Below, piece by piece: positions 13,580-55,878 of a stretch of 64,000 nt of DNA (the first letter of the stretch is position 1; every line of letters starts with the position of its first letter). Origin of the DNA: Riptortus pedestris (Eukaryota; Arthropoda; Insecta; Hemiptera; Alydidae); contig CM032229.1 in the NCBI GenBank assembly GCA_019009955.1, forward strand, positions 7,546,001 to 7,610,000, given 5' to 3'. The translations under genes were made by a program, and so were the position numbers. The notes beneath the pieces are model-generated. The model did no database searches and was not told the DNA's origin. It saw only the letters and a program-made list of their open reading frames with translations.

Positions 13580-13646
<67 letters not shown>

Positions 13647-18686: not shown

Positions 18687-18760
<74 letters not shown>

Positions 18761-23527: not shown

Positions 23528-23579
<52 letters not shown>

Positions 23580-25698: not shown

Positions 25699-28600
25699 TG
25701 TTACCGCTCGTTATTGTACGTCATATAGCCCAATCTTATTGTAAATTAAATGTACTATGTAATGTATGTGCGTTTATTCTCTATCTTGAATGTAAACCCG
25801 GATGTCTACATGTTTTAGCAGATTCCCCTTAACGTAAATCAGCTATTGAGTTTGTACTCATGACACGATTTTCAAAACATTTCATCAAATGTCCATCGTT
25901 CCTACCCACGAGATGACGAAAATGCAGCCCGTCAAAATTATGTATATATGTATATTTATATTTGTCGTTAGTGCTCTAGTGGTTGCAATTATTGTTTGAT
26001 CGTTACCAAACTTGATATTTACTCGTTTTATGTAAAAAGAAAGATCAAGTTTGTTAACAGCTGAAATCGGACCAGGAAAAGGGGGGGGGGTTAGAGAGGA
26101 GGATTTTTGAAAATTCGAAATATCTCTGTTACAATATTTCGGATCGAAAGATTGTCTAGAACAAATCTTATTGCAATTTAATGTACTATAAATATTGCTA
26201 TATACATTTATTCTGTCTTGAATATTAACTGAGATATTTGCATTTTTCAGTTTTCAGCCTTCAGCAAACCCCCACTTCTACTGATGTTACATAAACGACA
26301 CTCTGTTATGTAATAAACCACATTATTCAAAGCTTAAACACCATACCATATATTGTTTTCAAGAGACCTTTATTATACGAGATACATGCAAATATGTTCT
26401 GGTGACCCCCAAAATCTTAAGTTCTTGGACTATTACAATTTGATTGATTGAGATAAAAATTATTCTGATCAATTATAAATTACAGTACTAGATATAGTAA
26501 ATAGTTTTTAATAAAATGAATATGTTATATTCTGATATATTTCAGGAATTCTTTTTTCATTCCGGTGAGAAGTTGGCACACCTGTTTGTTTACATTTCTG
26601 TTGTTTTTGTTGTATTGGGTTTAAGGGCGAAAAACTACCAGGTTATCATCGCCCTGTAATATTTATAATTCACATTTTGGTATCCTCATCCATATCGCCA
26701 TTTTAACAATATAAACGAGGATACGAGCTTGCACTTTAAATTTCTTTGTATAAACTCGTGTTTTTTACAAAATTAAACAATTTATCGAGTTCTTTCGGGT
26801 CTTCTCCAAGTGCCACTTCTATACTATTTGAAATATTGTATTTGTTTCTAATATCTGTATACTTATGGCATTCCATTAATATGTGATATATAGTCAGTTC
26901 TGTGTTACATTTCTCACAAATCGGGAGTTGATCTTTTGTCATAAGATAGCCATGCGTAAGTCGTGTGTGCCCAATTAGGAGTCTTCCTAATACAACCTCA
27001 TATCTTCTGTTGTCTCTTGTCGAATATTTCCATGGACGGATGGTGGTTTTAATAGTTTTTAATTTATTGTTCTGGGTTTCATTCCACATATGTTGCCAGT
27101 TTTTATTAATTTCTTCTTTGAGTGGTTGGTAGAGTTCTGCAGATGTAATTGTTGTTGGGGTGATGGAGTCGAGTTGATGGGCTTCTCTGGCTGCTAAATC
27201 TGCTTTTTCGTTTCCATATATTCCCACGTGGCTTGGAATCCACATGAAGTAGACGGCCCTTTTTAGCTCTCGGAGCATTTGTATTTGATTTTGTATTTTT
27301 TTTACTATTGGGTTGTTTGTGAATACATCTTTGATACTCAATAGGGCACTCAACGAGTCAGTGCAAATCAGGAATTTTTCTTGAGTTGAGTGGTTGCAAA
27401 TGCCGTGATATAGAGCGAATTTAATTGCGAATAGTTCGGTGGAATAGATGCTGGTTAATTTGTTGGGTTTGAATTGTTGACAGGCATTTTCTTCGTAGGT
27501 GGCGCAGGAGGAAGACTCGGTAATTTTCGAACCATCAGTGTATATTATCTTTGGGTGTTGATATTTTTCTATTTTATTAATGAAAGCTTCCTTTATTTTC
27601 CAATAGTTGATCTCTTGAGACGATTTGTTTATGAGTTTGGTGATTCCTGTATCTATAGATATTTCTTGAATTGTCCAAGGTGGAGTTTACATTTCTGATG
27701 CTTCCCATTGGGAGGTTTCTTATTATTGTTTGTATTTATTCACTTAATATTTACAGTGCTATTGTGCTACCGTTATGTAGATTTACCTATTGTTAATTTT
27801 CATGAAGGAGAAGCTTATTCTACACAGCCCCTGTGCGACGGAATTTTATTTATTAACGTCCAGTTTTTGCTACTATGGGTTACTAGCCTTTTCTAGCCAG
27901 GGTGGGCTAAGGATTATATTTAATGAATCCATCACTAAATAAATTCCTATTGCCCAGGCAGGAATCGAAGTCGCACCTCTAGGTTTACAATGTGAGATTA
28001 AAACCAATGCTTTAACTCACAATGCTAACCTAAGCCCCAAATTGGAATATATTCTGTGATGAACACAATAAATAAAATCCTTAGTCTCTGGCTAGAAAAG
28101 GGTAGACGCTTGTAGATATACAATCTACAATTATGTGAAAAAATTGTTATATTTTTTCTGATAAACAATTGTCATTAATATCACAGAATTTGGATATGCC
28201 TCTGCCTTATTACAATTATTTCACTTTTCTTTCCTTCTTTTATCAGATTCCCTTAAGCCACGATTTTCAAAATTCTTCTTCAAATGTCCATCAAGGACAT
28301 AGGACCTAGATGACAAAAATGAGGTCCATTCAAAATTATATGTATATAAGGACATGTTGGTCAGTGGGTAAGAGAGCGTGTGCCCTCTGAGACTAGTTCC
28401 CTCCGTCATCACTGCTCCAGATACTGCTGAATTATGTAAAATCTTTCTTCCTGCTCCCAAGTCCCTAAATTCATTTCATTTTAAATGGAAAAAAGTTTGA
28501 TTATTTTGTTTTCTAAAATATTTGAAGGTCGCTTGTTGTTTACCAAAATCGCGTCAGCAATAACGGAGACAATTCTCCGGATTATAGATGTTCTTCAACA

Positions 28601-29484: not shown

Positions 29485-32400
29485 CATATCATTTTGAACG
29501 GACCTTATTTTCATTATCCACAATGTAGGATCAATGAAAATTTCAGGAAATTTTTTGTAGTCATATCATGAGTACAACCTCAATAATTGATTTCCCTTAA
29601 GGGAAATCTGCTAAAATAAAATAGAAAGTAATCGCAATAAAAATTATTTCTCAGCTCCTATGAAATATCTTTTTATTCTTATTTATATAATATTCTTTTA
29701 TACATATTTCACAGGACCTACGAAATATCTTATTCCTAATATCAATCCTACTGTTAATAAATATTTGGAGAAATCTACGAAATAATACAAATTAAAAAAA
29801 AAACTTACCATTCGTTGGAATCGATCTCTTGGAACTTTAAATTGATCACCTCCAAGAATTCTAACCATTTCAAGTCGTTCACACCATGGCCATATCATAT
29901 AATCCACCATACCTGGTTGGTCACCTAGAAAAAGTTTCCCCATTTTAGAAACAAATTATTGATTATTGGCAAATACCTCTTTTACTGAAGAATCTTATTT
30001 AATGCATAAAATAATTTTTTAAATAACTACACTTTCTGCTACTACGGCTAATTGATACAGGTTATCAATAGCTTAATTTCCAGCGAGGCTAAGGACATTA
30101 TTTAGTAAATTCCCCATTTCATTAATTCCTATTATCCATGCAGGAATTGAACCCATCACTCAATGTTTATCAAGGGCATTATAACATGTGGCTTAACATA
30201 ACTGCCTAATTGTAAAGCCTATTTATTTACTAATGTATTCAATTCAGCAGATAGCTCTTAAAGGAACTCAGCTATTGAGATTGTACTAATGACAAGATTA
30301 TTGAAAAAGTCCATAAAATGTCCATCGATCCTCCCCAAGAAATTATTATTATATACACACGCACACGCACGCACACACGCACACACGCACGAAGGCACGC
30401 ACACACACACACACACACAATATACTTACTTAATACCTAAAATATTACAGGGCAAAAGATCCGTTCCTTGGTGGAATAGAAACCTAACTGGTAAGAGAAG
30501 GGAAGTTAACCGGCTTCGTAGAAGGTATCAACGTACTTATAATAATATGTCACTAACAGAGGAAAGGAAGAGGGACTATTATCATCATAAAATGGTTTTT
30601 AAAAATATGATTATAGCGGCCAAGAAAGAATCATGGAAGGAATGGATTGACTCTATTGATGCTAGAAATCCTTGGAGCTCGGTGTATAAAATTTTGTCTG
30701 GTAATAGAGCGGGGAGTCGAGCTATTACTACGATAAGGAAAAGGGACGGATCATTCATCAGAACTCTTCAGGAAACAGTTGAGGTCATATTAGGTTATAC
30801 CGAAGGATGACATAAACTCGGAAAGTGCTGGTCAGCAGCAGTTAAGGTTGGACATTGAGCAAGAGCTTGATACTCCGGATGATGTTCCCTTCAATGAGAA
30901 CAAGATTTCTCAAATCGTCAACCAACATAAAAATAATAAAGCTCCAGGTGTGGATGGAGTTACTAATGAAATCCTTAAAGTGGTTTACAGTGTTTTTCCT
31001 CAGACTACTAGCTTATTATTTAATTCTTGCCTTAAATCGGGAGCGTTTCCACGAATTTGGAAGGTAGCAAAAGTGGTCTTGCTGATAAAACCTGGGAAAG
31101 AACAGGTCGAAGACGCATCAAAGTTTAGGCCGATAAGTTTGTTAACAGGGTTGGGTAAAGCCTCGAGGGGCTTTTCATTAACAGAATAAGGCACCACATG
31201 GAGAAGAGAGGGTTAATCTCTAATAAGCAGTATGGCTTTAGACTGCAGAGAAGTACAACTGATGCACTACTTTGCGTCACTAGTCACACGGATGCCTTTC
31301 TTTCCAGAAGTGACGTACTGGCAATTTCTTTGGACGTTGAAGGTGCCTTTGACTCTGCATGGTGGCCTGCGATTCTAGGCCAGCTGAGACTTACTGGCTG
31401 TCCAAGAAATTTATACTTGCTCGCTAAAAGTTTCTTTTCTGAAAGGAAAGTGCTTTTAGATATTGATAGATCAGGGGAGCCAAGAAGCTTGGAAAAAGGA
31501 TGTCCGCAGGGTTCCAAGTCGGGTCCATTCTTCTGGGTTCTACTGTATAACTCGTTGCTGGGAATAAACTTGGGCGAGAATATTGAAGCAGTGGCTTTTG
31601 CAGATGATTACATGGTACTCATTCGAGGCAAAACCAGGGATGAACTTGAGCTAAAGGCCTACTTAGCTATGCGTTAGGATTTTAAAGTGGGCTGAGGACA
31701 TGAAAATCAAATTTAATCCTGAAAAATCAGCCTATATGTATTTCACCAGAAGAAGGGTGGAAACTAATTTGGAGATAAAGCTCCAGGGAAAGCGGGTCTT
31801 TGAGGTAAAGCAGTTGAAGTATTTAGGAGTTGTATTGGACAAGACACTGAGTTGGAACTGCCATATCGACACTGTTGTTGGTAGGATATTGCCTATTGTA
31901 GGGAAAATGGCAAGGATTGCAAGAGTTCGGTGGGGTTTGAACTCTGAAGTCCTTAAGGTGTTATATAATGGAGCAATCCTCCCTATGATGAAATATGCTT
32001 GCCCGGTGTGGGTTGAGGGACTGGCAAAGAAGAAAAATAGGATCAAGCTAAGAAGAGTGATAGCTCTGAGGATAATTAAAGCTTACCGGACGGTGTCTTA
32101 TAGCGGCTTGTGTCTTGGCAAATGTGATCCCAATACATCTGGACATAGAGGAAACAGCCACATTTTATCTTGTGAAGAGTCTGGTGTACAAGGATAAATA
32201 TTCCCAGATGTCATTGGAGCTGCCTACAAGATATGATGATTGGGGTCACCCTGAAAACCAGCTAATAGTAAAGCGGGTTGAGGAAGTTGGTGATTGCAAT
32301 ACCCTCATCTATACATATGAGTATAAAGACGGCGCAAATGTGAGCTGTGCTTTTGTCGTATTCCACAAAGCCAGGATAATTGCTTCCGGGAAATACAGAT

Positions 32401-33343
32401 TGAACTCCGAAAATTCAAATAACCAAGCTGAAGCTCTAGCCATTTTAAAGGCTTTGGAATGGGTTCGAGGAGAGGCTCAGGGAGTTTTGGAGAAGGTGGC
32501 TGTTGCAACTGATAGCTAAATTACTCTCGAACGTATTGGAAGCAATTGCCATTTAGAGATAATTGAATCCATTAGAAGAATACTACATGATATCAAGAGC
32601 GCTGAAGTAGTGTTCTGTTGGGTTAGAGGTCACGTTGGAATTGTGGGAAACGAAGAAGCGGATCGGCTGGCTAATGAAGCTAGTAGGGATGACAACTTAG
32701 TGAGGGAACAGCTATAAAAATCCCATTGTCAAGCCTTGAGGAAGCCGCCAGGAAGGACACGCTGGGACGATGGGAAAGGGAATGGAAGGATTCCGGTAAT
32801 GCGTCATTGACAAGAAAGGTCATTCCCACTATCGGGAGAAGGCAGAAGATGGAACTTCAAGCATCATTTTCCAGCTAACGCAATTCCTTACCGGGCATGG
32901 GAAAATGCGTAGCTATCTTCACAGATTCCACATTTTGGAAGAGGATGTCTGCCCTTGCGATAATGCCTCATCTCAGACAGTGGAACACCTGATCTTTGAC
33001 TGCTCTCATCCAGAGTATATCAGGGCACCCATCATCCGAACAGCTATGGGGGGGGGCTAAATATGAGTTGACCACTTGAGTTGCATCAACTTACACAGCA
33101 AGAAGTATTTGGTGATTTTATTCATTTTGTTGTAAGTATAAATTTTGAGGTGTTGTAAAACAAGGAAAAAGAAAAAAAAAGAAACTTGTTAGTTGTTTAT
33201 CTTGTATTTAATTAGGTTTTAGTATTTTATGGTATAAGTTTTTAGTGATTTGTATTTGTTATGTAACACATGTAGTATATTTTATGTGTAGCATGTGTGA
33301 TTTAAGTAATAAAATCCCTTTTGGTAGGGTTACTACCATTAGG

Positions 33344-33385
<42 letters not shown>

Positions 33386-34652
33386 ACGCACACACACACA
33401 CACACACACCAGCTAAGATACCCGGCTTTGCTCGGGAAATCAAGACTGCATTGCTCGGGGAGTCTGAATGATGATTGTAATTTATTTTGGCTTTGCCATG
33501 CAAAATATTTTTACACTTCTCATCTCAAGTCTTAAACTTACTATTTATTTATCCTAGTAACCATAACAATAGCAAACTTATAGCATTTTTTGTCTCATAA
33601 AAAACATAAGTTCTTAATGAACCACTCTCCACTGTTCAAGATATTGTTTACAATATATATCATAAATCATGGATAGCAAACATTCAATTACCATAGAACA
33701 GAAAATTCATAATTAGGACAGCATTATTTATTATAAAGTATGCAAGAATACAAATTTACTTCAACAAAACAAGCACCTTTTGTAATGTGCATCTTTGTCA
33801 AGAAACCAATGGGAAGCGATTTTTCATTTCAGGTTTCCTATGTAACACCCACTCCTGTTCATTCCTAACAATGTTAATATATCTTATAATCCAAGAGACA
33901 TTACTACTAACCCACTGACAGAGTTTTGTGAAGTTCGGTTTAGTCTTTTGAGTCATTTAAAATTGTTCACTCCCGCTATAGTTTTTAGTATATATTTTAT
34001 TTATAATTCGGTATATGGCAAAAGTTTATTAACAAAAGTTACTTTAAATAACATAATAAACAACTTTTCTTCTGTGCATGTTTGCCAAAAACCCACTAGG
34101 AAGCGAAATATCGCAATATTTCATTTCAGGCTTCCCTTATAAACCCCCTCTCCTGCTGGTCCCTAGAGATGTTTGAACAGCTTATAATCATGGGGGAGTT
34201 AGTGCTAATTCGCACACCAAGTTTTGTACAGTTCGGTTAAGTCTTTTGAACCCCATTGTAGTTTTTAGCGTACATCTCATTTATACTTCTGTACATGGCA
34301 AAAGTGTATACAACAAAAGTTACTTTAAATAACAAAATAAACAACTTCTGGTATGTGCAAGTATGGCAAAAAACCAATAGGAAATGAAATATCGTAATTT
34401 TTAATTTCTATTTCTTATAACCCCCACTACAGTTGGTCTCTGAGAATAATAGTATAGTCTAAAGTCTAAGTTGGGTTAGTAGTAATTCACGTACCAAGTT
34501 TCATAAAATTCAGTTTAGTAGTTTAGTTGAGAAAAGGCAACAAACAAACAGACACCAAAGAAACAAATTGCAGATATCGTGTCTATGGCACTAGAAACGA
34601 AAAAGTATCATGAGAATTCAAGAAAAAAAATCAATGTACAGACAGAGCTTTC

Positions 34653-34711
<59 letters not shown>

Positions 34712-35769
34712 TATACCCAATTAAACCCAAGTTGGTTGTGTTTTTAAAAGAGATGAAGTGATAGAAATACAAAAATTCAGACTTGAAAAACTGTGTACCA
34801 ATAATCAGGCAGAAAAAATTGCAATCTTAAATAGTTTACTGTACATAGACGACAAACAACCTTCAACAAACATCAACATTTACACTGATAGCCACAATTC
34901 TTTACAATCACTTCAAAATTACACAATTCATGACCCTTTGTCAGAAAAAATCAGACAGTTACTTACAAGACTTAAACAAAATAATATACACATACACTTT
35001 TGCTGGATCAAAGGGCATTCTGGAATTTTGGGAAACGATCTCGCTGAGATATCAAAATCAGCCTCAAAAGATACCAAAATTCCAGAATGCTACAACAAAA
35101 TCACACTTAAAAACACAATTACTTACTGACACAATTAACACATGGCAACAGAAATGGAATACGACTATGAAAGGACAACATTTAAAGATATTTATTCCAG
35201 ACATTAAAGAGTACTTAGGACAAAAATTAATATCAACTGACTTTTACTTAACACAATTATTAACTGGACACGGAACAACAAATTCTTATTTTAATCGTTT
35301 TGGCCTAACAGATCAACCAAACTGTTACTGCGACTTTACTACTGAACAGACATACAGACACTTGCTCTATGACTGCAGACTACTAACAGACCAAAGAGAA
35401 AACTTTAAAACCCTACTAAAATGCCGACAAAAAAATTGGCCTGTTGAGGAAAAACTATTATTTTATAAACATAATAAACCATTAAAACAGTTTGCTGAAG
35501 AAATGTATGACTTTCTGAATTATTTGAAACTGAAATACAGTTAAATTAATTAATTATTCAGCATTGAATTCAAAATTTGTTTTTGTTTTTCTTTTCTTTT
35601 TTTTTCTTTTTCTTTGTTGTAAATAATTTTATTGTACAAATATCTTATGTTATTATAGTTTAAAAAAAAAAAATATGTATCAAGCACACGTTATGTACTA
35701 ATTATTGTACGGGATGTGTGGCTAATAAACACCCTTCCTGTAGGGTTACTTCGGGAAAGAAAGAAATAA

Positions 35770-35821
<52 letters not shown>

Positions 35822-38800
35822 AATAAATACTTGATAAGAAGTGCTTAATGAATAAATAAATACATAGCTTGAATTAATGGAGTATAACACAGGTAAATGT
35901 TACATGAAACAATCAACACGATCAGGTTTTATCAATCAAAACTAATTCAGTCAAGGTCACAATGCATTCCTGCATAAGAGTATTTACTTATATGATAAGC
36001 TTCTAGACTATACTCGTAATCAGAAAGCAAATGAGATTAAATCCACTTATAGCAAAACAAACAAGCCATCTCAGAATACCAGCTCAGAAACAAGCCATAG
36101 ATAAAAAGACTAAAGAATTTTAAGACATAGTTTTTTTAAATGTTTAAAAATTGTTTCACTACAGATCAAAATATAAAAAATATGTCAAAGGACCATTCAA
36201 ATGGTTATAAGTGGTTTTTCTTAGGCAAAGGGGTTTGCTCGCATGGCAAAATTACTACCTATCTGTCAGCTGAAAATTTTGAGATATTCAAACCAAACTT
36301 TGTATTTAAACAGGAAAGAAGAAGAGTTTGAAAAAAGCCAGAATCGGGCCAGGGGAGTTTTTTATAAGGGGTTAAAGAGAAAAAATCAAAATAACCCTGC
36401 CATATGAGTCAGATCTGAAAATGTCTGATAATCAATCTTTTTGCATATTTCATTTTCTAAAACTTTCATTCTATTAATTTTTTTTCATAAATGAGATAAA
36501 CAATTTGAAAATTTTTAGCATAGTCATATGAGATTAATGTTGTTGAGTCATTTGTGCATCACAATTTTTATTGTATTTATAAAAAGAAGCTATTAGAGAT
36601 TTCTCAAATGACAAAACTACACATAAATTCCTTCAAATCTTCACCAAAACCAAAGTGTGATGTAAAAGTAAAAATGTTGAATCAATTATAACTTCTATGG
36701 TGGGAGATGGGGTTCTTATTTTATTTAATTAATGAAATTAATTAATGCAGTTTCATTTAAAATATAGCTTATTACTTGTAAGTGATTTTTTTCTTGTCGC
36801 CCTCCTAAGTCCATATTTTGGTTTTATTGTTGTTGTAATTAGTTTTTTTTTCTTTCTAAAGTACTTATAGTAGTGATAGTTTTTTAGTAAATTTCCTTTA
36901 AGGAAAATCAGCTACTCATGACACGATTTTCGAAATTTTTCTTCAAATGTTGATCAATCCTACCTAGGAGATGGCGAAAATGAGGTCCATTCAAAACTGG
37001 ATGTATGTATATATATATAAATACTAGCTAAGGTACCCGGTGATGTACACTTCCCTCCACGACGCACGGTGGTCTGAAATGGCCGGTTTGGCGAAAAAAT
37101 TACCTATCAAACAACATATTATTTTTTCTTTTTGAAGAGTCTGGTATAAATAAAGACACACTTATATCTGATGTATATTATGATTTATATACAAGACTAA
37201 TGAAAAATTCTTTGCTTTATAAGATTAAACAACTTCATGTAATTTTATATAAATTTTTTAAAAACTAATGTATTTCCTATAAAATTTATTCAATTAATAA
37301 TAAAAGTTTTTTCACTTCTGGATGGAAATCTAGTCTGTCTTTAGTTGTAGGCTCTTTGCGAAATTTATTAATGTAGGGATCTGACGTCACAAGTAGCATA
37401 TGAAAAACATCTTCGTTAGTCGAAATTCTACTACATTTTCTTGATTTGTTGAGACGATATTGACGGTAATCTTTGTTGCGCGCCTCCTGTGCCTCTTCAG
37501 TCAACATCCCTATCGGCAACATCACAGCTGAAATAATGGTGCTTCCGTGCCAAAGAACCTTGTGCACAGTATTAGGCATGTTGTACCATCTATATAAATT
37601 TACAAATAAAGTGGCAGTTTCTTGACAATAATTTCCAAATTTTGCTGGATCTACAGCAGCGCCACTGTTGATTACATCCAGGATAACTCCAAAACGGTGA
37701 ATAAGTTCTTCATTCACTCCAGTTATATTAGCTGTAGTAGGTGGATCTTGAAAAAATCGTCGTGAGGTATTCCCATCATTGGTTGTACCCATACCTTGCT
37801 TCACCATGTCAACATTAAGTCCCAACATAGCTCTAAACTTTTTTTGAATTTAACGTTTGGTGTCTTCCATTAATTGTTTGGTGTCCTTCGTTGTTCTCCA
37901 TTCTTGAAACGGTAATCTATATGCAATTTTCAAAACACACTCCATAAATTTAATTCTTGCATGGAGAGGAGATAGGCCGAGTTGAATTGCTTCTTCAGAT
38001 TCTGGTAGATTCCGTAATATTTCTAATTCGTTCATCTGAGAAGGTTTAGCTTTGCATATCGGACAAACAGCCATGGATGATGTCTCAGTTAGTGACTGTG
38101 TGACTTTTCCATCGATCATTGAGAGAACCATTTCATGATGAATTCTAAAAGTTATATTGTGGAGAATAACAGTGGAATAAGTTGTAGTTAATATTTCGAG
38201 TTTAACTTTTTGAACTTCTTCTCGAATTGTGTTTGGTGTTTCTTTCATAAATTCAAATTTAATGGGTCTGCAATGTCTTGTAGACGATGGCCTTGTGTTT
38301 TTCCAAACAATTGTTGTCTTGTCATCCTTATTAGTCAAAAGCAATGGGACAAAAGATATTAGAAACATATTTGTATCAGTAATATTTTGACCTACAAATG
38401 TCTGTTTATATTCACTATGTCCTGAAGAGCCATCGTATCCCCATTTAGAGACTAGAGTAAGGTCGTGGCTTACAAAATTTAAATCGGTCTCCTGATATGT
38501 CATCAAAATTCTTTTTACGGTATGATCAAGCAACTTTGGCCAAACTCTCAGTGACTTCAATATTTTCAGGATAACACTGCATTTTGGCTTCCAGTAATCT
38601 TTTGTACGATGGATATATGTCAAAACCTTGATCCTTTGCCGTTTGCCTTAGAATTTTATATTGTAACTTTGAAAGAGAGGCATCCGCTAATAGCGCCAAA
38701 GCTTTTTCAGAACTGAAACCTGGAGGCTTTTCCTCTTTGGCCTGTATTGACTTGGCTGCAGATGTGATCAACCCATCGGAAAAAGTGTCTTTTAAGTGTT

Positions 38801-39294
38801 TAATTTTCGATTGTTGACTCCGTATGCCACACTCCTCGAAAGGTTTTTCAGGCCGACCTCTTTGTGCAATTGGCTTGTCTAAAGAATCAATATTCGTTAT
38901 TGAAATAGTATTTTTCAGCCAAATTTCATTTTTTTTTAAGAAAGCGGTCTTAAGTGCGATTTGCTTCTACCCATCTACGATGAAAATGCGGTAAAAATAC
39001 TTTTTTTAAATATTATATCAACTATTTCTCGATATGTGCAATGAAAATTTTCCATTATGAAACAAAAATATCTTGGATGTTAACCTTTCTCATTGGAACA
39101 GTTCAAGAGACTAAGGAAAATAAATAAATAACATCTACTGGGGGTGTCTTTTAGATAAAGGTAATAAGTACTAATATTATTGACTCCGGTTTAGCGTATA
39201 TCCCGTGTTTACTTCATTTTACGACAAAAGTGAATGTGCACAAAAGTTACTCTAAATAACAAAGTAAACAACTTTTGCTATGTGCATGTATGTC

Positions 39295-39342
<48 letters not shown>

Positions 39343-42300
39343 CTGTTACCACTCTAGCAGTTGCAATTACCGTTTAATCGTTACCAAACTCGAAATTTAG
39401 TCATTTTATGTAAAAAGAAATATCAAGTTTGTTAATGGCTGAAATCGGACCAGGGCGAGGGGGGGGGGGGGTTTAGAGGGGGAGAATTTTGTAAATTTGA
39501 AATATTTCTGTTACTATACGTCAGATTGAAAAAATTTATAGAATCAATATTATAGCAAATTAAATGTACTATAAATATTGTTATATACACTAGATTACAT
39601 GACGTTTAGTTCACACGATGTTAGGGACTTTCATCTGTTTATCACACGAACTGTTTGTCACACAGTCTTAAATTTTCTGTTTAACTCAACTTTGTCCTAG
39701 GCTAACGCTTGGAGCGAAAAGCTCAGGTTTAGCACACGCCTAGCTGAAGAGACCTGAAAGGTCGAAATGAAGTAACGTATCATCACTGAAAGTGGGATTT
39801 CAAAACTTAATGTTACACGGTTATACACCGATTGACTTGTTTCGGTTGGTGGGACTCTGGTTTATCATTTTCGTACTTACGGTAGCTCATGAGCAACGCG
39901 AAAAAGCATTGAACGATTGGAATTAAGGCAAAACTGCCTTGTTTTAAAGATATTTGTTCAAAAGACTTTTGTCTAAAGACGTTTGTCAAAAGAACTTATG
40001 TCAAATGAACTTGGCTTCACAGCCGTTTCCGAAGAGTGTTTGCAAAACAGTAGACTACACGACGTTTAGTTCACACGATGTTCTGGACTTTCATCCGTTT
40101 ATCACACAAACTGTTTGTCACACAGTCTTAAACTTTTCATTTAACTCAACTTTGTCCTAGGCTAATGCTTGGAGCGTTGTTATATACATTTATTCTCTAT
40201 CTTGAATATTAACCGAGATAATTGCATTTTTCAGTTTTTAGTCTTCAGCAAACCCCCACTTCTACTCATGTTGCATAAACAATATTCGATTATGTAATAA
40301 ACTACATCATTCGAAGCTTAAATACCAAATATTGTTTTCAAGAGACATTAATTAAACGAGATACAAATGCCTTTATATTGTATTGTATCTACTTATTGTT
40401 TTTCGTGGTCGCTTTTTGTTTTGGAAAGTTTAAGGTACCTCCCACTCACAGTCAGATAAGCCCTTCTAAAATTTTATTCAAAATTTTTTTTTTTTTTTTT
40501 CCAAACCTTCCTTGCACCACATTAAATTTCTCTGGCCGTTGCTTTACTGATTCGGGGGGAAATTCTAGTGTACGTCCCAGTTCGTTTGGTACCTTAAACT
40601 GGAACATCCGCTATCTGCCATCCCTACATGTGGCGATCGAACTTGAAAGTAGTTTTTTTGTACACTATGAAACTCCTGTTCTATTGTGTACTTTTAACGT
40701 TTTGAAGCATTATTTTTCAATTCAAGTGAGCAGTCTAGATACCCACCAAGGCAATTTCCGGTGCCCCACCCCACATGGGCCTTCCCCCTTTTGCGGTCCC
40801 CTCCCTGCTTTAACGACTAGCCTACACTAGCGGTATTTTCTGCCTCTTCTCCAACAATCACTCTGCTACAAGGACCCAAAGATCCCCTGAGATTTTTTGT
40901 CAGTTAGATAGTTCAAATTATTCTTTTCTTTTTGGATATATAATGTATAAAATTAGTTCTTTCTTAACCGATTGGGAGCATTTTTATTTTTTGCCAATAA
41001 ACAACACTGATGTAACTTTAAGAATAATGAATCTGCAAATTACACGTATAGTGAGGGCGAAGCACAAGTCGCTGTATGGTGATCCCAAAGGGATCGCTTC
41101 ACCATTTGGTGATGATGAAGGCATTGCTTTCGAAAGAGGGGTTAAGTGGCCCCATGACATGAGCTAGTTTCATATTACTCTCTTAAAAGAGCTTGTTGCC
41201 ATTTTCATCATTTTAGCTTCAAAATACAATTCTTTGTCCCTCCTTTTCAGTTCCCACTATTGTCTATCAGAAGAATTAAACATTAGTTAACAAGAAAATT
41301 GCAAGAGGATAAGTGGATTAATGGAATAATAAAATGAAAAAGTATAAATAACTATCTTAGTTAGAGTTCCAACAAAATATGTTGAAAAAAATTGTAGGAA
41401 ATGACAGGATTAGCAAGATCATTTACATAAGATTTTCTGAAGTGGCCCAAAATATCAGAATTATTCACAAGGGTACATATTACCCATACTCTAAACCCCC
41501 ACTGTTTCTAGTCCGATTTTATCATATATTCTTTTCATCATCTACTAGATTTGAAGTTTTGAAAAACTGTACCATGAGTATAACCCCAAAACCTAATTAT
41601 CCATAAGGTTAATCTGCTAAAACTACACAATCATAAGCCATTTATCGTTAGCAAGCCTATATTTAATTTTCCTAGGAGTACGGGCTAACATTCATTGGGG
41701 ATAAAAGGTATAAGGGGAGAAAATTTAAAGCGAAACTAAACTTACCAAAAAAGAATGGTGTCCCCCTTTTAGCTAGTTCCTTCTCAAAGTAATCCATTTC
41801 ATCGAATATTGATTCTAGAATTGCTGGATCCATATTGGGTGTCGAACCAGCATACAGCTTATACAACAAGGATGTAACCTGAAACAGTGACACTTAGATT
41901 AAAACATTAAAAAAAAAAAAATCATTGTGTGTATATTAATTCTCTAAATCATTTAACATGTATTCTTAAGTTATTGAATTTCTTAACATGTGCATATTCA
42001 GAAATTAATAAAGTTGATGGGAACTCTCAGATCTCTTTTTTACCGAACTATGCCACGAATACAGTTATCAGCTGATGCAGTGAATTTGTGATATGGCCGT
42101 CAGCTAGTGTAGAAACATACAGACATCACAAAAAAGGTACTCAAAATGGTTTCAGGGTGGTCCCCAAAAGGATGATTCCATTGAAATCTCAAAACCAAAC
42201 TTTTTGTGAAAGCTATCTTTCCTTTGATCAAGAAAGTTTAAATTATTAATTATTTACTGGTTATGTCCTCTCTACTGCCCCTCTACTCTAGGGAAAAGGG

Positions 42301-45300
42301 TCATTTATTTGCCTTAAGTATCACTACTACTACAATTCTTCTATGATTTCTGGTATCTTCTGGCTTTTAATGGTCAACTCTTTTTCAGGTGTCAGTCCAC
42401 TTCCTTTGCCATTTTGCCAGCTTTTCTTTTTGTAAACGATTTTTAAAAGATAATGGGGGTGAGGGAGTAACTGATTGAATCAGACTTATAGATGCTGCTT
42501 TGGAGTTGAGTCTGCAATTTCATGTCCTCTGAACTTCAATTGACTAACTTCTAGATCGTACATTAACCTTCTAGGACCTGAGCCTCTATCGCCATCTTAT
42601 CATTCAGTGTGGTCCACAGCTAGAATTCTCCAGTTCTTGATCCCTAGCCTTTGCAAGTCCTTCCTCAGGTCATCTAGCCACCTCTCCCTGGGCACCCCAC
42701 TTCTTTCCATGGCACCTAGTAAATCACACAACATTTTCCTAGGCAATTCATTAGGACCCATTTTCTCAACATGCTCTAGCACTAGCTGTCTTTCTTAATA
42801 GTGCATGCAATATCAGGCTCACTGTATAAGTTTCTACATATAACGCCATAAAACAGTATTTAGAGATAATAGTAGTACCCTACAATAGACCGTATAATAT
42901 CATTTATCGTTTCCTCTTCAAACATTTGGCAGAGGTTGTTGTTTTTGGGTAGAATGGCTTCAACCACATGGAACTCTACGTATCAACCCATATTCATGGG
43001 ATTGTTGGTTAGTGCTATGGCCTAGTTAGAGAGCCTGGGTTCAAATCATGGTGAAGATGATACATTTTTCTCTTACGTGAAAAGTATTCGTTAAGAATTA
43101 TCTAATTTCTAAAACCCATAGAGAAATTCCCCCCAATAAAGGCTTAAAAAGAAAATGAGAACCTCTATATGAATCTGAAGAATTCTACAAATACAAATTA
43201 GTTCTACTTTATAAATAATGTGATTTTTTCCTTAAGTTTGCTGAAATTACATTGTACTACAAAAATGTATAGTATTTATGGAATTAAAATGAAAATTCTA
43301 ATGAGTATAAAAGACGAATATGTAAAAAAAAATTACCCTAGAAAATCTATCGGCAAGGAGACGGTCGAGAGCTTTTCTAAGTGGATCTCCTCTAACGTGC
43401 AAAGGCCTGTCAGGATATTTTTCATCGAGGAAGTCAGCTATGATAAGACTTTCATACAATTCTACACCGTCAACTGAAATTGCAGGCACTTTTCCAGATG
43501 CAACCTTCTCAAGGTACCATTCCGGCTTGCTTTTTAAATTAATATAGACAACATCATGACTAAAACAAAAATATAAATGCGCATTATAATTAATTTTGAA
43601 CAAAAATAAAATGAATGAAATAATTCTTCTATCTTAGAATATAAGAAATGCGATTAAAACTTATGTAGAATATGTATAAAACAAAAAGATCATACACGTA
43701 CAAAAAGAAGGGTGGGATTGTAGAAAACCACAGTATCATAATGTAGATGTCACTAAATAACATTTTCAATGTATACAAGTAGTTTCACATACATACATAT
43801 GTGCATACGATATACACTAAAGACTATAGGGGGATAAACTCCTCCATGATTATAAGCTATATTAAAGCTTCTAGGTATGAACAGGGATGGGGGTTTTAAA
43901 GAAGGTGCAAAATGAAAAATTGCTTTATTTTGTTCCTATTGATTTTTTTTTGGCAAACATGCACATTACATAAGTAGTTTCTTTTGTTATTTACAGCAAA
44001 GTTTGTCACACACACCTTTGTCACATACTGAAGTACAAACGAGATATACTATAAAAACTAAATCAGGAGTAAACAATTTTATTAGGTACCGACTACTGAA
44101 CCAAACTAAACAAAGCTCATTATTTGAAATAGCATTATTCTCACAACTACTAATGTTACATACATCATAGTGATGTATTTAAGCTTTTCGCTTCTCCTAA
44201 CTACTACTTTAATGTTAATACTGTATACATAATACCCTTCTATTTTAATACTGAGAAGAATTCAAATGAGGAAAAATGATACAACTCCTAGTTTATGTCA
44301 GCCGTATTATGGTGGAAATGCACAGATAATGTTATAATCAGTTTGGAATAATCATTATTATATAAATAAAATAGGTGTCATCATTGCTCTTTGGATCACT
44401 TTTGGGCCAAGGAGCTTTGGTATGGATTAGAGAATACTATCCATGATTAGGAATAATATGGCTCATGATGTTTTCAAAAAAGATACATACACAGGAAATG
44501 GGAAATATAAACATATTGTGAATAGTGAAGCCTCTCATAGAAAATACCTATATAATTAGCATACCTCAGTAACACCGGGTACCTTAGCTAGTATACATAT
44601 GTACATAAAACAACAACAAAATGGGAAAGAAATCCCAAATGATTGAAGTTCTCATTTTTGAAGGAAAACAATTAGTGAACAGGAAAGGAAAATTCAGCAA
44701 CTATTGACAATACTCCTTAAAAATAACAAAGTATTATTTATATGTATTTTTGAAAAGCAAATATCCAACATGGTTTTAACAGTTAAAGGCAACAAATAAT
44801 GATGTATTCGTTTATAATCCCTCAATTACCACAATCTATCTGTATTTTACTGATTGATAAAGAAATATATGTGTTACTGGTTAGTGATTAATAATAAATC
44901 ATTCCTAATCCACGTAACCCCTGAATGATGATTTAGGTAAAAAAAAAAAAAAAAAATGCGAGTAGGGTACTGTGGTATATGACATGTATTTAATATCATA
45001 TCGGAGGAATATGTATATATAGGTATGGAAAGTAAATAAGCAACAAAAAAAAGACAAATTAATATTTCTTAATCTATAAATAAATTAATTAAAATATATA
45101 TTTAATCTTTTACTGAGATAAGAGACAGAAATTAAACCTCAATTTTAAATGAATAATAAACGTCTCTTGAGCATATAATTTTTAGAAAATAATAGTTTAT
45201 AGTCTTTCCAAATAATGTTTAAATTAAATTATAGCAATTGTAAAACACTGAAATTCCACAATAAAAATAAATTACTTAGATCATATTACAAAGAATAAGA

Positions 45301-48300
45301 AGATGCTTCCAAAATATTTCATTAAGATATATTGTGAAATTATTGAAACAATTGTAATTTATATATTCTTCAAATTTTATGGCAAGGGTCTCCAATAAAA
45401 AACATTTTTTTCCGGTGCAAACTTAATTGAAATGGCCTATATGTTTTGTGACTTATTTGCCACCTCGTCAGAGAAGGTTCTAAAGTAACAGGTGAGGACA
45501 GTTGCAACAAATGCAAAAGGTAAACGAGCACTTCAGAAATGGATAGCCCCTGAAGAGGTGGCAAATAAGACATGAAACATGTAGGGCAGTTTCAATAAAG
45601 TTTGCACCGGAAAAAAAATGTTTTTTTATTGGAAACCCTTGTCATAAAATTTGAAGAATACATAAATAATACTGGGTCCAGAATAAGAAGGATTGTGATT
45701 TAAAAAATAATAGCAATCAAACAAGGCTACTCTTCAAATAGCATTTGTGAATGTTAAACTATGAATTATAATCTGCAGTTGTTTTCAATCCGCTGTAGGA
45801 GCAGCATCGGAATGGACTTACTTTTCAAATCCTTGAAGAATGTGTGTTGAACGCAGGCTTGAAATGATGCTTGACATTGTGTCCTCCATCAGATTCTCAG
45901 TTGAGAAAAATGCCATCAACATGAATGTCCTTTGGAGAAACACTCAAAAAAATTGCGACTGCTAGAGCGGTAACTGACAAATATATATATATATATATAT
46001 TAAAGGTAAAGGATGAAGCAGTCCTACCTTAACACACTCACTGATAGGCGAGCTTAATTAGACTTGTCGAGAGTACAGAGGTCATCTGGAGCTGAAGCCT
46101 GATGGAGACTCCTGAACTACATCACTAGCACTATGTCTAACAAAGGCTTAACAATTTTACTAAATGCAAACTGCATACATAAACTATGTTGGCGTCAACA
46201 ATATGGATGACTATACAGGAACAAGAAAACCTTTGCCATTTTAATAGTTGGATTATTACCTCCACTTGAGTAGCCTCACTTAAGCATTTAAAATAGAGTA
46301 TTTTTTTTTTCATTACCTGAAGTAAAGGAAGTATTACAATCACAAATATTCAAAATGTCAACCGAATTATCCATTTTGACCATCCTAGGACCCATTTTGG
46401 CTAGTTGAGCCATGAAGTCAACATAACTCAACACATGGTACAGTGAAGGCTTAACACACTCACAGATAATCGAGCATAACTTAAAAACAGCTAGCTTTAT
46501 GAATGTTGCATTTCATATTTTGCATTGTTGTAAAATCTAGTTGTCCACTGCCCCTTTTGATAGAAATCAACTAGAGAGGAGGGGGCAAACATAAAATATT
46601 GCATATTTCTCTGAACCTATAGAGATACAAAATTTTAAGGGACCTTTTCATGTTCAGATTATATATAAATTAGGCTCTATGACAGTTTTACTGATAATTG
46701 AAAAATGAAATAATTTTAAATGAAACTCAGCAAAATATTTTGTATATTTAATTTTATAGGAGTACCAGGAAGGGGCATGGTGCCCCATGAGACTTTCTTA
46801 CATCAGTTATTTGAACCCCTAGAGAAAGATTACATATGAATTCTATTAATTAATTAAAATCACTTATCATAAAGGGATTGCTTAGTAAGTATATAATATT
46901 GGTTAGTTAAATTAGTTCATAGCATTTCTCAAAGATGGTGTAAGTCATTCGGTTAAAGCGTAAATAACTAATAGTTTCACTTTATCAGTTACATCGTACA
47001 GGATAAAGTGATTTTTGGGGGGGGGGGGAGTTTTTAATAACTTAACATGAAGAAATGTCCTGCTGAAAGCTATCAAATTACAGAAGATGTTTGCAGAGAG
47101 TATGTTTTGAGCACTGGAAGTGGTTCGCTCAGTTTAAAAGTGATCATTTTGAGCTGGTAGATGCAGCCAAAAAAAAAAAAAAAAAAAAAAAAAGGAAATA
47201 AAATATATATACAATATATAAATATCACATATTATATATTTTGGTAATATAAAACCTCAATTTATAAAATAATTCAAACTTTCAATATATATGCACATAT
47301 AATGGAGGACATTAAGCAACTCACGAATAAAAGTTATGTGAATCATTCCTGCTACTGCCACTTCCTTCCAATATTTTCTAAGCTAATTTTCTCTGGAGAA
47401 ATAAGAAGTAAAAATGTATAAAAAAATTAGGTGACATTGCAGACTGTGATCAAGAGAATCTTTCAACAAACATCCTTATATTTAACTGAGCAATATTTAA
47501 ATCAAACTGATAGAAGTCCAAACACTATTACTTGAAGAGAATAAATGAATATAAACTTACGGGATGTTCTTAGCATTCAAGACAAGGTGAGCCCTCTGAG
47601 CATATGGGCAAAACCTCATGCTATATAATCGCAGTTTCCCTTTTTGTAAAGGAACTTCTTGTGATCCTAAAAACATCAACAAACATAATTTCATTAATTC
47701 TATTTACATAGGAAAAAAAGAAAATGTATAGTAAATTATTACAGTAGACTTTCGCTAATCCAGAAACATTCGCATTATTGACATGAATGCCTGTGGTGCG
47801 GGGACTACATAAATTAAAAATTCTTAAGAAGTGCTAGAATGATTTAGCCTCCTCTAAATCCCCCTACTTCCTCTTATTATTATTATTTATTAATGTCAAC
47901 TTTTTGCAACTCAGGCTAATTGGGACAGGTTATCTACAGATTACCATCCTTTTCTAGCCAGGGTGGGATTTTAGGATGTTATTTAATGACTTTCGTCACT
48001 AATAATTTCCTTTGCCAAAGCGAGAATCAAACTCGTCACTCTAGGTTTCCCTACTTCCTCTTCCAATTACAACAACACATTTTGTCTACAGCTTTGTATA
48101 AATAATTTAATTTAATAAGTGAGGATAGTATTTGTCAAGAAAATATTGAGCTCTTAAGAAAATACAACTGTTATTGATGAGATCATACTAAGTATACTTT
48201 TATGTATCTCACATCATAAATGTTCAATGAAAACCTTATTTGATATTTAAAATAGGAAAACAATGTTTCATTATATCATATCAGCTTATTCCTAACATGA

Positions 48301-51390: not shown

Positions 51391-52312
51391 TGTAAAGGCG
51401 GGGAGCTTTTTAAAGACAATAATAAGAGAGAGCATTATACTGAAATAAAAGTATTAAAGAGATAATTTCCTCATAAGAAAGCATTAGACTGAAGTATTTA
51501 CTATTTTATGGAAAGATGAGAGTGAATAATACAAATCACTATTTGAGTTCTCCAAAGAATCAGATTGATTAAGCAAAAATATAATAATCTTTATAGTAGA
51601 CAGCTAATTTTATACAACTTAAATTCTAAAGAATGCTGAATTAGAAACTAACCTTATGACAAATTGAACCAAACATTAACATTTATTAATATAGAGGTTG
51701 AAAAAGAAACAAAGGAAATTTAATTTTATAAAATACTTTAGCGGCAAGCTAATAATATGTATACAATATAATGATCGATCGGTCCTATATTATGAGTACT
51801 CATTTAATACAATAGTTTGCGAAGATAATGCTAGCATTATAATAAGACGTAGGTACCTGCGGGAAACATATACTTTCCTTGAAGTGGAGTCTTCTTCCGG
51901 TGTTATTTGGTGTTCCAATGAGATTCTGTCTTCTAGCTGGTTACGGTGATCCGTATATGATGGTAGAGTTGCGGGAGATGAAAGATAAACTATTACAGAG
52001 GGTCAGAGCCCAACTGAGCGGTTATCTCTGAAGCGGAGTACACTATTACTGTAGCGGTAGAAACGACCCCGGAGAGGGACAAGGCCCAACTGAGCGTAGA
52101 AACGACCCCAGAGAGGGCCAAAGCCCAACTGAGCGTAGAAACGACCCCGGAGAGGGTCAAAGCCCAACTGACTTCCGCTTGAAACTAGCCGGTGCCTTCT
52201 TGAGCTAGCGCCGTAGTTTCCGCTATTGGCAACGCCTTTACGATCTTCATATGAGTGGTGGGTTTGTGAACAAAGCGAGCACGGGAAATTCAATTCAAAT
52301 GACGACTGAACA
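51391..52312. mobile_element. Solo LTR (922 bp) with 5-bp target duplication
   Basis: Starts TGTAAAGGCGGGGAGC and ends GACGACTGAACA (TG...CA). CCAGT stands on both sides (51386-51390 and 52313-52317). It contains three 39-bp tandem units (52057-52170). No gag-pol sequence is present, so it is a solo LTR; superfamily is unknown. Confidence 0.8.
52057..52170. repeat. 39-bp tandem repeat, three units, inside the solo LTR
   Basis: Units start GTAGAAACGACCCC at 52057, 52096 and 52135, each ending in CCCAACTGA(GC). A partial unit (GGTCAGAGCCCAACTGAGCG) lies at 52002-52021. Confidence 0.85.
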
Positions 52313-52763
52313 CCAGTCTTGGAGTATTTGTGTTTGTACAATCTTGTTGAGGTCTGTTGTTGTTACTGTAGTTATGTCATTAGTAGTCATTATTGTTGCT
52401 AGTTTTGCATGTTTTTCGACATCAATCATTTGTTTAATGTCCCAGTGTCCGGGTAACCACAACATTTTAAAATTGTAAGTGTTTAGTGCGTGTATTAGTT
52501 CTATTATTTTTGTAATTAGTGGGTGATTGGAAGAGATGTTTCCCATGGAAAGTAAAGAAATTAAAGAGTCTGTGCATAAAATTACTTGGTGTGATCGATT
52601 TTCTAATTTTGAAAGTGCTAGTATGATGGCGTGTAGTTCTGCAGAAAGTACTTGATTCGTCGTGTAGTTTAACTTTGTATGTTTTGTTTTTGGTAGTGGC
52701 AGAGCCCATCCCGCGTTCTCCCTCAGATCCGTCTGTGAAAATGAATACAGTGTTAGGGTTTTG

Positions 52764-53770
52764 TGAAATTCGCACTCACCAAGCATGGCTACCCCAGCCA
52801 ATTCCTTGCTATGCTCCGCTCCTTCCTACACGGCCGGTCCTTCCAAGTAAGGGTCGGCGTCTCCCTATTCTCATCCTATCCTCCCCGAATGGGAGTGCCT
52901 CAGGGCTCCCCCCTCTCACCTTCTTTGTTTACGGCATACACCGTACAAGTGGTAAGTCAACGGTTTCACAACACTGAGGTAACAGGAGCAAACGCAGATG
53001 ACGTGGCGATCGTTAGCACTTCCCTCAATCCTGCCCGCGCCCTACTCCTAGCAGAATCAGCTGGTCAAGCCATCTCCGACTACCTTAAATCCATCAATAT
53101 CCACATGAATCCCAGGAAGACTGCCTTTTTTTTTCTCGTACTATAAACAACACGCACCCATCCCCGACACCTTCCGGCTCAACAACACCTCCCGTTCCAT
53201 CTGTTACCTAGGAGTCCACCTTGACAAACACCTTACCTTCTTCACCCATATAGATCACAAAATTAAATCAGTCAGATACAAGTTCGAGTCCCTCAACTAC
53301 CTCCTCACCTCCCCTGTCCTCAGCCTCCGCCTGAAACTCCTTATCCTCAAAGGCATCATTCAACCCGCCCTCCTATACGGATCCCCTGTCCTCTGATACC
53401 TCTCCAAACTCCAATCCTTTCAAAACGGACTTGTCCGTAATATCGTCCGGCACACCTCCCTCCAAAGAGCCCCTAACTGGATAATCCTACCCTCAACCTA
53501 AAACCCATTTCCCAGACCATCTCCCGCCGTCATATCAAATTTTTCGATACCTTAGAGCACATGGATAACCCCCTCTACTCCTCCCTCCAACCCCCTCTTC
53601 AGTCGGTGTGTTGGCGAATGGCTGTCGGCGACAACGAGCCTCTAGTCGACATCACCGGCTATTGAACGTCTACAGCACTGCTTGGGCACGGGAGCACTGG
53701 CCATAAAAACACATAGCTCACCATCAATATCTTGCCGTGTAGAATAGGTTAGGTTAGTTAATTTAGGTCT
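52764..53770 (+). pseudogene. Second LINE reverse-transcriptase fragment, C-rich
   Basis: The plus frame shows GVPQGSPLSPSLF and, 60 residues on, NADDVAIVS (family norm YADD). A frameshift near 53140 leads to SICYLGVHLDKHLTFFTHID and LLILKGIIQPALLYGSPVL, the thumb region. Several stops follow. The C-rich base use differs from the other LINEs here, so it is a different lineage (Jockey-like is a guess). It abuts the minus-strand RNase H relic at about 52785. The untranslated tail may run to ~54090. Confidence 0.75.
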
Positions 53771-54816: not shown

Positions 54817-54978
54817 TAGCAGATTTCCCTTAAGGGAAATCAGCTATTGAGGTTGTACTCATGACGGAATTTTCGAAATTTTTCTTCAAATGTCCATCGA
54901 TCCTACCTAGTAGATGACGAAAATGAGGTCCGTTCAAAACTGTATATATATATCTATATATATATATATATATATATA

Positions 54979-55013
<35 letters not shown>

Positions 55014-55570
55014 ATATTTGTCTGTTACCGCTCTAGCGGTCGCAATTTTTGTTTGATCGTTACCAAACTCGATATTTAGTCGTTTTATGTCAAAAGAAAG
55101 ATCAAGTTCGTTAACGGCTGAAATCGGACCACGGGGAGGGGGGGTTTAGAGGGGAGGATTTCCGAAAATTCGAAATATCTCCGTTACTATTCGTCATATC
55201 GAAAAAGTGTACAGAATCAATCGTATTGCAAATTAAATTTACTATAAATATTGTTCTATACATTTATTCTGTATCTTGAATATTAACCGAGATATTTGCA
55301 TTTGTATTCTGCGTGTGGTACCAGTAGCCTATGTTCGGACTTTCCGCCGAGAGCTCTGGCGGCCTTTTCCATAACTATCCGTCCCTCGTGAATAGAGGTT
55401 AGGTTAACTGTGTTTCGGGGCTAGAAACTACTGGGTTATTACGCCCTAAATAATGTTTTAGGTTTAGAGGTTTCTTTCTATTACAGTTGTTATTAGGCAG
55501 ATTTCTCTATTGTAAAACTTCACGTGGGAAATCTGCTTAGTTTACGCAGCCCCTGCGTGACGGACTTTTT
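54817..55570 (+). mobile_element. HINE-like element, full length (module B), young
   Basis: The ends are TAGCAGATTTCCCTTAAGGG and CTGCTTAGTTTACGCAGCCC, CTGCGT, GACGGACTTTTT. The microsatellite is (TA)n(TATC)n at 54945-55015. The 3' interior (GTGTGGTACCAGTAGCCTAT; GAGAGCTCTGGCGGCC) differs from modules A and C. Near-identical to the copy at 55684. Confidence 0.88.

Positions 55571-55831: not shown

Positions 55832-55878
<47 letters not shown>

What the first reader, a model, noticed from the sequence alone, without database searches (positions are those of the whole stretch)
39689..39773. Complete hammerhead ribozyme fold in an insect-type intron
GTC, CTGAAGA (fits CUGANGA) and GAAA fall in the right order, and the three segments between them close into stems of 6, 5 and 7 pairs. 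Stem I carries an extra inner hairpin, as natural hammerheads with loop contacts do. The helices use independent sequence segments, so chance is unlikely. The order (stem III outermost) is the type III layout known from plant viroid-like RNAs and retrozymes; animal retroelement hammerheads are mostly described as type I.
Basis: partly seen in the sequence, partly recalled or inferred. Interest (0 to 1): 0.9.

Follow-up and report, generated by a model that had tools for sequence, protein, structure and literature searches.

The report
Mobile element with two-strand hammerhead ribozymes
An insect genome, likely that of a true bug, carries many copies of a tiny mobile element whose two strands each encode a hammerhead ribozyme motif, a layout known from plant viroids; its RNAs are predicted to cut themselves to unit length, likely close into circles, and would then be copied back into DNA.

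Summary
The hammerhead at 39689-39773 is real: all core bases, stems of 6, 5 and 7 pairs, type III order; no equally good hit in 300 simulated windows. It is not a lone intronic motif. It lies in a 587-bp insertion (39590-40176), 1.28 copies of a 460-nt unit, flanked by a 12-bp target duplication, with empty sites in paralogous repeats. The insertion sits in an intron of a GSTO-like gene, antisense to it. New here: the opposite strand of the same unit holds a second type III hammerhead, decayed in this copy but intact in 28 of 40 family segments; 21 of 37 units have both intact. The family is dispersed: 166 exact matches to a plus-ribozyme pattern, control 0. One end is fixed and the other variable, which suggests target-primed reverse transcription of minus-strand RNA. 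Described animal retrozymes carry type I hammerheads; two-strand hammerheads are known from viroids, satellites, HDV-like agents and the plant retroviroid CarSV. Cleavage, circles and RNA replication are untested. Rfam, minimum-energy folding and RNAalifold do not recover the fold.

The parts
39590..40176 (+). Inserted element, 587 nt: one 460-nt unit plus 127 nt of the next
   Evidence: Direct repeat 39587-39716 / 40047-40176, spacing 460, 91% identical; bounded by the target duplication and absent from paralogous sites
39578..39589 (.). Target site duplication, left copy TTGTTATATACA (its last bases may be shared with the element's own start)
   Evidence: other copies start (T)ACA-CTAG
40177..40188 (.). 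Target site duplication, right copy TTGTTATATACA
39689..39773 (+). Plus-strand type III hammerhead with extended stem I; predicted cut between 39696 and 39697
   Evidence: 42 of 48 family segments keep CTGANGA
39864..39917 (-). Minus-strand type III hammerhead, decayed in this copy (one core position off, a base missing at the cleavage site)
   Evidence: R1 15.8 bits, E 0.049; descriptor expected 0.008 times per window; intact in 28 of 40 family segments
40149..40176 (+). Partial second unit: substrate arms of stems III and I and the cleavage site, without the catalytic core; in principle a second cut here would release a 460-nt RNA
   Evidence: sequence; one difference from 39689-39716; the cut is inferred
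29809..47667 (-). GSTO-like (pyrimidodiazepine synthase-like) host gene, exons at about 47667-47560, 43558-43331, 41881-41744, 29931-29809 (a further one at 25246-25121); the element lies in the intron 41744..29931
   Evidence: tblastn with P0001, P0002, P0003, P0005
39296..39577 (.). TA-microsatellite-linked repeat that served as target; other copies in the window show the empty site

Best explanation
The element at 39590-40176 is one copy of a dispersed retroelement-like family whose roughly 435-530-nt tandem unit carries a type III hammerhead motif on each strand; the two motifs are predicted to cut plus and minus transcripts to unit length, these likely circularise, and the minus RNA would then be copied into DNA at a nicked target. 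Shown: the insertion, its target duplication and empty sites; the dispersed copies; both motifs with intact cores in many units; one fixed end opposite variable ends. Inferred: self-cleavage; circle formation; target-primed reverse transcription by another element's enzyme on a circular or multimeric minus RNA (the window insertion is longer than one unit, and a target end (T)ACA could pair with UGUA inside the RNA). Also inferred: the second ribozyme is kept because RNAs of both polarities are processed.
For: Insertion with 12-bp duplication and paralogous empty sites. Tandem 460-nt repeat. Plus motif 31.0 bits, minus motif 15.8 bits, the two best R1 matches in the window, next 10.4. Genome: 66 matches among the 40 scored of 810 candidates; 166 exact matches to a 34-base plus pattern, reversed control 0. 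Of 48 plus and 40 minus segments (those aligned over at least 85% of the query, at 41 loci) 42 and 34 keep CTGANGA; 38 and 28 also keep site and GAAA; both intact in 21 of 37 units at 19 loci. R1 reaches 43.4 bits for a minus and 38.8 for a plus motif in other copies. Core positions are more conserved than random position sets: 12 of 20000 draws as high for both cores, 158 plus alone, 809 minus alone. One double change in stem II of each ribozyme. At least 17 of 57 5'-side ends at one nucleotide, 3'-side ends scattered. Five plausible target duplications among 41 loci against a control mean of 0.75. Two insertions with unrelated flanks are 99.2% identical, so recent movement.
Against: No RNA was measured: no cleavage, circle or transcript data. 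Rfam misses both motifs (15 bits to Hammerhead_1). The hammerhead fold lies above the minimum by a median of 4.2 (plus) and 6.3 kcal/mol (minus), within 2 kcal/mol in 14 of 48 and 1 of 40, against 54 of 70 in viral type III controls; with flanks the plus stem III has near-zero pairing probability. RNAalifold gives no pairs for plus and a partly different helix for minus. Covariation is essentially one inherited double change each; two of five shuffle measures show nothing (265 and 446 of 500 for plus, 87 and 466 for minus). Minus stem II has one bulged base in most copies. In 36 of 41 loci no convincing target duplication was found. The unit is no more self-paired than shuffles (z -1.16). The helper enzyme is not identified.
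Confidence: 0.7

Rival explanations
1. A stronger version of the best reading: it is the DNA record of an animal viroid-like replicon (a retroviroid). Circular RNAs of both polarities multiply RNA-to-RNA by symmetric rolling circle, are cut by the two hammerheads, and are sometimes reverse-transcribed into the genome.
For: Hammerheads kept on both strands, the layout of Avsunviroidae and of the retroviroid CarSV (PMC11722881); 435-530-nt units with little coding room, longest ATG frame round the circle 51 codons plus, 28 minus.
Against: Only chromosomal DNA is known; hundreds of dispersed copies need no RNA replication; the unit is not unusually self-paired, unlike rod-like or branched viroid RNAs (PMC11888127, section read).
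Confidence: 0.33
2. The two ribozymes serve to process transcripts of the palindromic (+)(-) arrays that the family forms: one read-through transcript of such a locus contains both motifs, and no RNA-to-RNA step is needed.
For: 16 of 41 loci combine plus and minus pieces; among the 100 listed of 166 matches 13 neighbouring pairs are (+)(-) and none (-)(+).
Against: 25 of 41 loci showed no inverted piece; the arrays may be a by-product of twin priming.
Confidence: 0.15
3. An ordinary single-strand type III retrozyme; the opposite-strand motif is a coincidence or a relic without function.
For: The window's minus motif is broken; minus core conservation alone is weak (809 of 20000).
Against: Minus motif intact in 28 of 40 segments, up to 43.4 bits with an independent model, with a double change in stem II; chance expectation 0.008 per window even for the decayed form.
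Confidence: 0.1
4. A DNA transposon or satellite spread by DNA mechanisms, carrying hammerheads by accident.
For: Some copies have inverted outer parts that look like terminal inverted repeats.
Against: Variable far ends and a partial second unit in the window copy; target duplications of about 10-12 bp.
Confidence: 0.04
5. An intronic ribozyme that regulates the GSTO-like gene.
For: It lies in the intron between 41744 and 29931.
Against: The intact motif is antisense to the gene; the one in the gene's sense is decayed; copies lie all over the genome.
Confidence: 0.01

Closest known systems
Metazoan non-LTR retrozymes (PMC7229834, passages read)
   Same: Short non-coding tandem units of low GC, target duplications longer than 4 bp, hammerhead per unit, dispersed copies
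   Different: Those carry type I hammerheads; the passages seen name no second ribozyme on the other strand (a search of that text for polarity words found none)
Extended type III hammerheads of termite and toad HDV-like RNAs, and isolated motifs in termite and fly genomes (PMC7936874, passages and section 3.2)
   Same: Type III in animals; first stem, internal loop and extra hairpin in stem I of the plus motif; HDV-like RNAs have one on each polarity
   Different: HDV-like RNAs are 1.5-1.7 kb and code for delta antigen; the genomic motifs were isolated, and no similar ones were found in hemipterans; the GCCR/YGGC loop pairing is not seen here
Carnation retroviroid CarSV (PMC11722881, passages)
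   Same: Hammerheads in both polarities of a small unit with a DNA form in head-to-tail multimers
   Different: 275 nt, plant, DNA tied to a pararetrovirus; here a large dispersed chromosomal family in an insect
Plant LTR retrozymes (PMC4918200, passages)
   Same: Type III hammerhead, non-coding, non-autonomous
   Different: They have LTRs with primer binding site and 4-bp target duplications; the window copy has a 12-bp one
Avsunviroidae viroids and viroid-like RNAs such as CtaHVd-LR1 (PMC9608096, passages)
   Same: Two-strand hammerheads, size range
   Different: Those are replicating RNAs, CtaHVd-LR1 without DNA counterpart and rod-like; here only DNA is known

Membership tests
Hammerhead ribozyme, type III (plus motif) | NUH site, CUGANGA, GAAA and three stems with stem III open | tested here: met
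   family segments
Hammerhead ribozyme, type III (plus motif) | Rfam hammerhead model above its cut-off | tested here: not met
   15 bits to Hammerhead_1, cut-off 34
Hammerhead ribozyme, type III (minus motif) | Same core and stems on the opposite strand | tested here: met
   met in 28 of 40 family segments, up to 43.4 bits; the window's own copy is broken
Hammerhead ribozyme, both motifs | Self-cleavage | not testable with these tools
   needs in vitro transcription
Extended type III of HDV-like RNAs | Pseudoknot between stem I internal loop (GCCR) and loop II (YGGC) | tested here: not met
   loop II is GAA or CGAAA-like and the internal loop UAAC; inspected by eye
Metazoan non-LTR retrozyme | Short non-coding tandem unit, low GC, target duplication over 4 bp | tested here: met
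   460 nt, GC 0.40, 12 bp
Metazoan non-LTR retrozyme | Type I hammerhead | tested here: not met
   both motifs are type III; no type I found in the window by my scan
Metazoan non-LTR retrozyme | Unit-length circular RNA in tissue | not testable with these tools
   no RNA data
Plant LTR retrozyme | 4-bp target duplication | tested here: not met
   12 bp; LTR, primer binding site and polypurine tract were not searched for specifically
Retroviroid / viroid-like RNA | Hammerhead in both polarities | tested here: met
   21 of 37 units with both intact
Retroviroid / viroid-like RNA | Unusually self-paired, rod-like or branched RNA | tested here: not met
   window unit as a circle: 60% paired against 61% in shuffles, z -1.16, 21 of 200 shuffles as low; this is a decayed copy
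Retroviroid / viroid-like RNA | RNA circles of both polarities and replication | not testable with these tools
   no RNA data

The most novel reading that the evidence does not exclude
An animal retroviroid: a chromosomal, recently active insect element family whose RNA multiplies through circles of both polarities, with a different type III hammerhead in each strand, and so stands between retrozymes and viroid-like replicons.
Probability: 0.33. Interest if true: 0.93.

Novelty: new variant of a known kind. Interest (0 to 1): 0.78.

Why it matters
[quoted passage not shown] A retroelement that keeps a ribozyme on each strand is a concrete candidate: if both RNA strands prove to be cut, circular and more varied than the genomic copies, RNA-to-RNA replication inside an animal becomes the likely reading. 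It would also bring retrozyme-like elements with type III hammerheads to a likely hemipteran, an order in which one structure search reported none of the extended type (PMC7936874), and the genome offers many copies, junctions and subfamilies to test it on.

Tried and rejected
Rfam searches gave no hammerhead above cut-off; the miRNA hits lie on the TA microsatellite and score below their cut-offs. A scan of all three hammerhead topologies found, besides the plus motif, one weak type III pattern at 31606-31774, which R1 does not list at E up to 10. Neither scan reports a hammerhead in the 298-nt tandem repeat at 58682-59470. Pol III box patterns gave scattered A-box-like hits on plus and one B-box-like hit on minus, no pair on one strand. 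Two exact 20-mers of the element are absent from viral contigs, one of them also from prokaryote genomes; neither collection would hold insect genomes. RNAalifold does not recover the folds. No tertiary contact between stem I loop and loop II could be named. The genome count for a minus-ribozyme pattern did not complete. Two hammerhead surveys (ids recalled) are not held. A helper enzyme was not sought. Statements that something was not found in print rest, searches of an open-licence library that lacks most subscription papers and holds no bioRxiv preprints; the two lists were complete, in most others only the top rows were shown.

Full report
Observation. A descriptor scan finds only this motif in the window, and 300 simulated 128-kb sequences gave 14 weaker hits and none as good; a looser scan adds one weak pattern at 31606-31774. 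Rfam has no hit at gathering score; with only 131 bases given, Hammerhead_1 matches the core at 15 bits, cut-off 34. Since Rfam's models may not fit so long a stem I, I built a type III model, R1, from 70 hammerheads of viral contigs. With filters off R1 gives 31.0 bits, E 2e-6 over the window; E-values of this model are rough. Against this, the minimum-energy fold of the 85-mer pairs the stem III arm elsewhere, and with flanks of 40 or 80 bases stem III has pairing probabilities of 0.02 or less.

Insertion. The motif is inside a direct repeat spaced 460 nt (39587-39716 and 40047-40176, 91% identical). The segment 39590-40176 has TTGTTATATACA on both sides. The DNA around it is a repeat with other copies in the window, and several of these cross the junction with one target copy and no element, for example 55110-55303, 55975-56168 and 60469-60663. 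This is a clean insertion of 587 nt. The partial second unit keeps the cleavage site and substrate arms but not the core, so a transcript could in principle be cut at 39696/39697 and 40156/40157 and release a 460-nt RNA; that is inference.

Host. Exons of a GSTO-like gene lie on the minus strand at about 47667-47560, 43558-43331, 41881-41744, 29931-29809 and 25246-25121. The best named matches of its joined exons are heteropteran bugs (Nezara, Rhynocoris, Cimex, Ranatra, Rhodnius; 58-62% identity; best 120 of 394 proteins listed), so the host is likely a true bug. The element lies in the intron between 41744 and 29931. The intact plus ribozyme is antisense to the gene; the decayed minus one is in its sense.

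Second ribozyme. R1 has one further notable match in the window: minus strand 39917-39864, 15.8 bits, E 0.049; the next is 10.4 bits. It lies in the same 460-nt unit. A descriptor loose enough to accept it, written after seeing it, has 43 hits in 684 Mb of simulated sequence, 0.008 per window. In this copy one core position departs from the invariant set and a base is missing at the cleavage site. In other copies the motif is whole: core, cleavage site, 6-bp stem I with 6-nt loop, stem III, and a stem II with one bulged base.

Family. The genome (1.08 Gb) gave 66 matches among the 40 scored of 810 candidates, and 48 among 40 scored of 674 for the ribozyme region. Of 60 fetched loci 41 are non-redundant. 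They hold 48 plus segments (42 with CTGANGA) and 40 minus segments (34 with it), counting only segments aligned over at least 85% of the query. With site, core and GAAA required, 38 of 48 and 28 of 40 are intact, and 21 of 37 units have both, at 19 loci (another plus pattern gave 37 of 48). R1 gives 79 matches at E up to 1 over the 41 loci, up to 43.4 bits for minus and 38.8 for plus; a few weak ones lie elsewhere. In 20 of 30 further loci given to R1, 11 have both motifs at E up to 0.01 and the expected spacing (L410, L411, L413, L416, L418, L420, L424, L425, L430, L434, L435). An exact 34-base plus pattern occurs 166 times, control 0; tandem neighbours among the 100 listed are 434-439 or 512-532 nt apart, so unit length varies.

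Selection. Over 40 copies of a 251-nt stretch, core positions average 0.977 (plus) and 0.972 (minus) identity, the spacer 0.935, the rest of the two motifs 0.931 and 0.940; random position sets reach both cores in 12 of 20000 draws, plus alone 158, minus alone 809. Pair counts: plus 92.8% of cells paired, stem II pair U-A 16, C-G 15, U-G 2, other 10 of 44 distinct rows; minus 91.0%, U-A 27, C-G 5, other 5 of 37. Shuffles reach the covariation scores in 7 and 2 of 500, but not so for the number of covarying pairs (265 and 87 of 500) or pair types (446 and 466). This is essentially one double change each, inherited by many rows: modest support. RNAalifold finds no pairs in the plus alignment and a partly different helix in the minus one. 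The hammerhead fold is above the minimum by a median of 4.2 and 6.3 kcal/mol, against 1.5 in the viral controls. For comparison, in the cricket pDo500 hammerhead the fold was the lowest-energy one for 33 sequences and not for 113 others judged potentially active (PMC2837043, passages).

Mechanism. In the sense of the plus strand, 21 of 57 5'-side ends found by BLAST lie at the same nucleotide; 4 (L371, L389, L396, L398) run on into unit sequence, leaving 17, of which 16 follow CA, mostly ACA. Of 25 3'-side ends at least 5 (L358, L362, L366, L367, L372) run on into unit sequence; the other 20 fall at 19 positions (read by eye). One fixed and one variable end is what target-primed reverse transcription leaves when the fixed end is the RNA's 3' side (established knowledge, recalled), so I infer the minus RNA as template. 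As the window insertion runs 1.28 units from the fixed end, the template was circular or multimeric. Possible target duplications: 8 of 41 loci against a control mean of 0.75, maximum 4 in 60 rounds; three of the 8 (L358, L366, L372) are unit-internal repeats, leaving five. A second group of 5'-side ends lies around unit positions 345-376 and is not explained. 16 of 41 loci combine plus and minus pieces. Among the 100 listed of 166 matches, neighbours within 1.5 kb are 13 (+)(-), 7 (+)(+), 4 (-)(-), none (-)(+); this fits twin priming on a minus RNA, and also copying that turns back on itself. Two insertions with unrelated flanks are 99.2% identical over 258 columns (L389, L363), so the family moved recently. 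Self-cleavage, circles and the enzyme are inferred.

Known or new. Metazoan retrozymes are described with type I hammerheads (PMC7229834; PMC11722881). Type III hammerheads with an extended stem I are known from termite and toad HDV-like RNAs, on both polarities, and as isolated genomic motifs in termites and flies; the structure search of that paper found none in hemipterans (PMC7936874). A two-strand hammerhead unit with a DNA form is known in the carnation retroviroid. I found no report of a chromosomal animal retroelement with hammerheads on both strands in the searches listed under Tried and rejected. The element works like a retrozyme but fails that family's type I feature; it shares the two-strand layout with viroid-like RNAs but is not shown to exist as RNA. 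Hence: new variant of a known kind, with an animal retroviroid as the bold reading.

Noticed in passing
genome G000, e.g. C1:97798802-97800445 and C1:231208116-231209393: Palindromic arrays: plus units followed by minus units; 13 (+)(-) neighbours and none (-)(+) among the 100 listed of 166 matches.
   Followed up: partly
genome G000, same-orientation neighbours: Two classes of tandem spacing, 434-439 and 512-532 nt, so subfamilies differ in unit length.
   Followed up: no
loci, unit positions 345-376: A second cluster of 5'-side element ends just after a short hairpin in the unit; unexplained.
   Followed up: no
window 39945-40012: Degenerate 14-15-nt repeats inside the unit.
   Followed up: no
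window 58682-59470: 298-nt tandem repeat, 2.4-2.6 copies; part of it recurs at about 39190-39287 and elsewhere. No hammerhead reported there by my scans.
   Followed up: partly
window 13599-14017, 18365-18751, 23531-23842, 25939-26386, 54975-55303, 55840-56168, 60460-60663 and others: Repeat family next to TA microsatellites, many copies in the window; it hosts the insertion.
   Followed up: partly
window 30794-32519, 34725-35544, 26736-27686, 52295-52825: Fragments of retrotransposon proteins (reverse transcriptase, RNase H domains), some in broken frames.
   Followed up: no
window 37286-38966, minus strand: Three overlapping or adjacent open stretches of one likely transposon-type protein without a Pfam match.
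   Followed up: no
viral contigs L001-L347: Hammerheads are very common in viral contigs: three helix II patterns each reached the limit of 120 stretches; my scanner labels 439 candidates type I and 103 type III.
   Followed up: no
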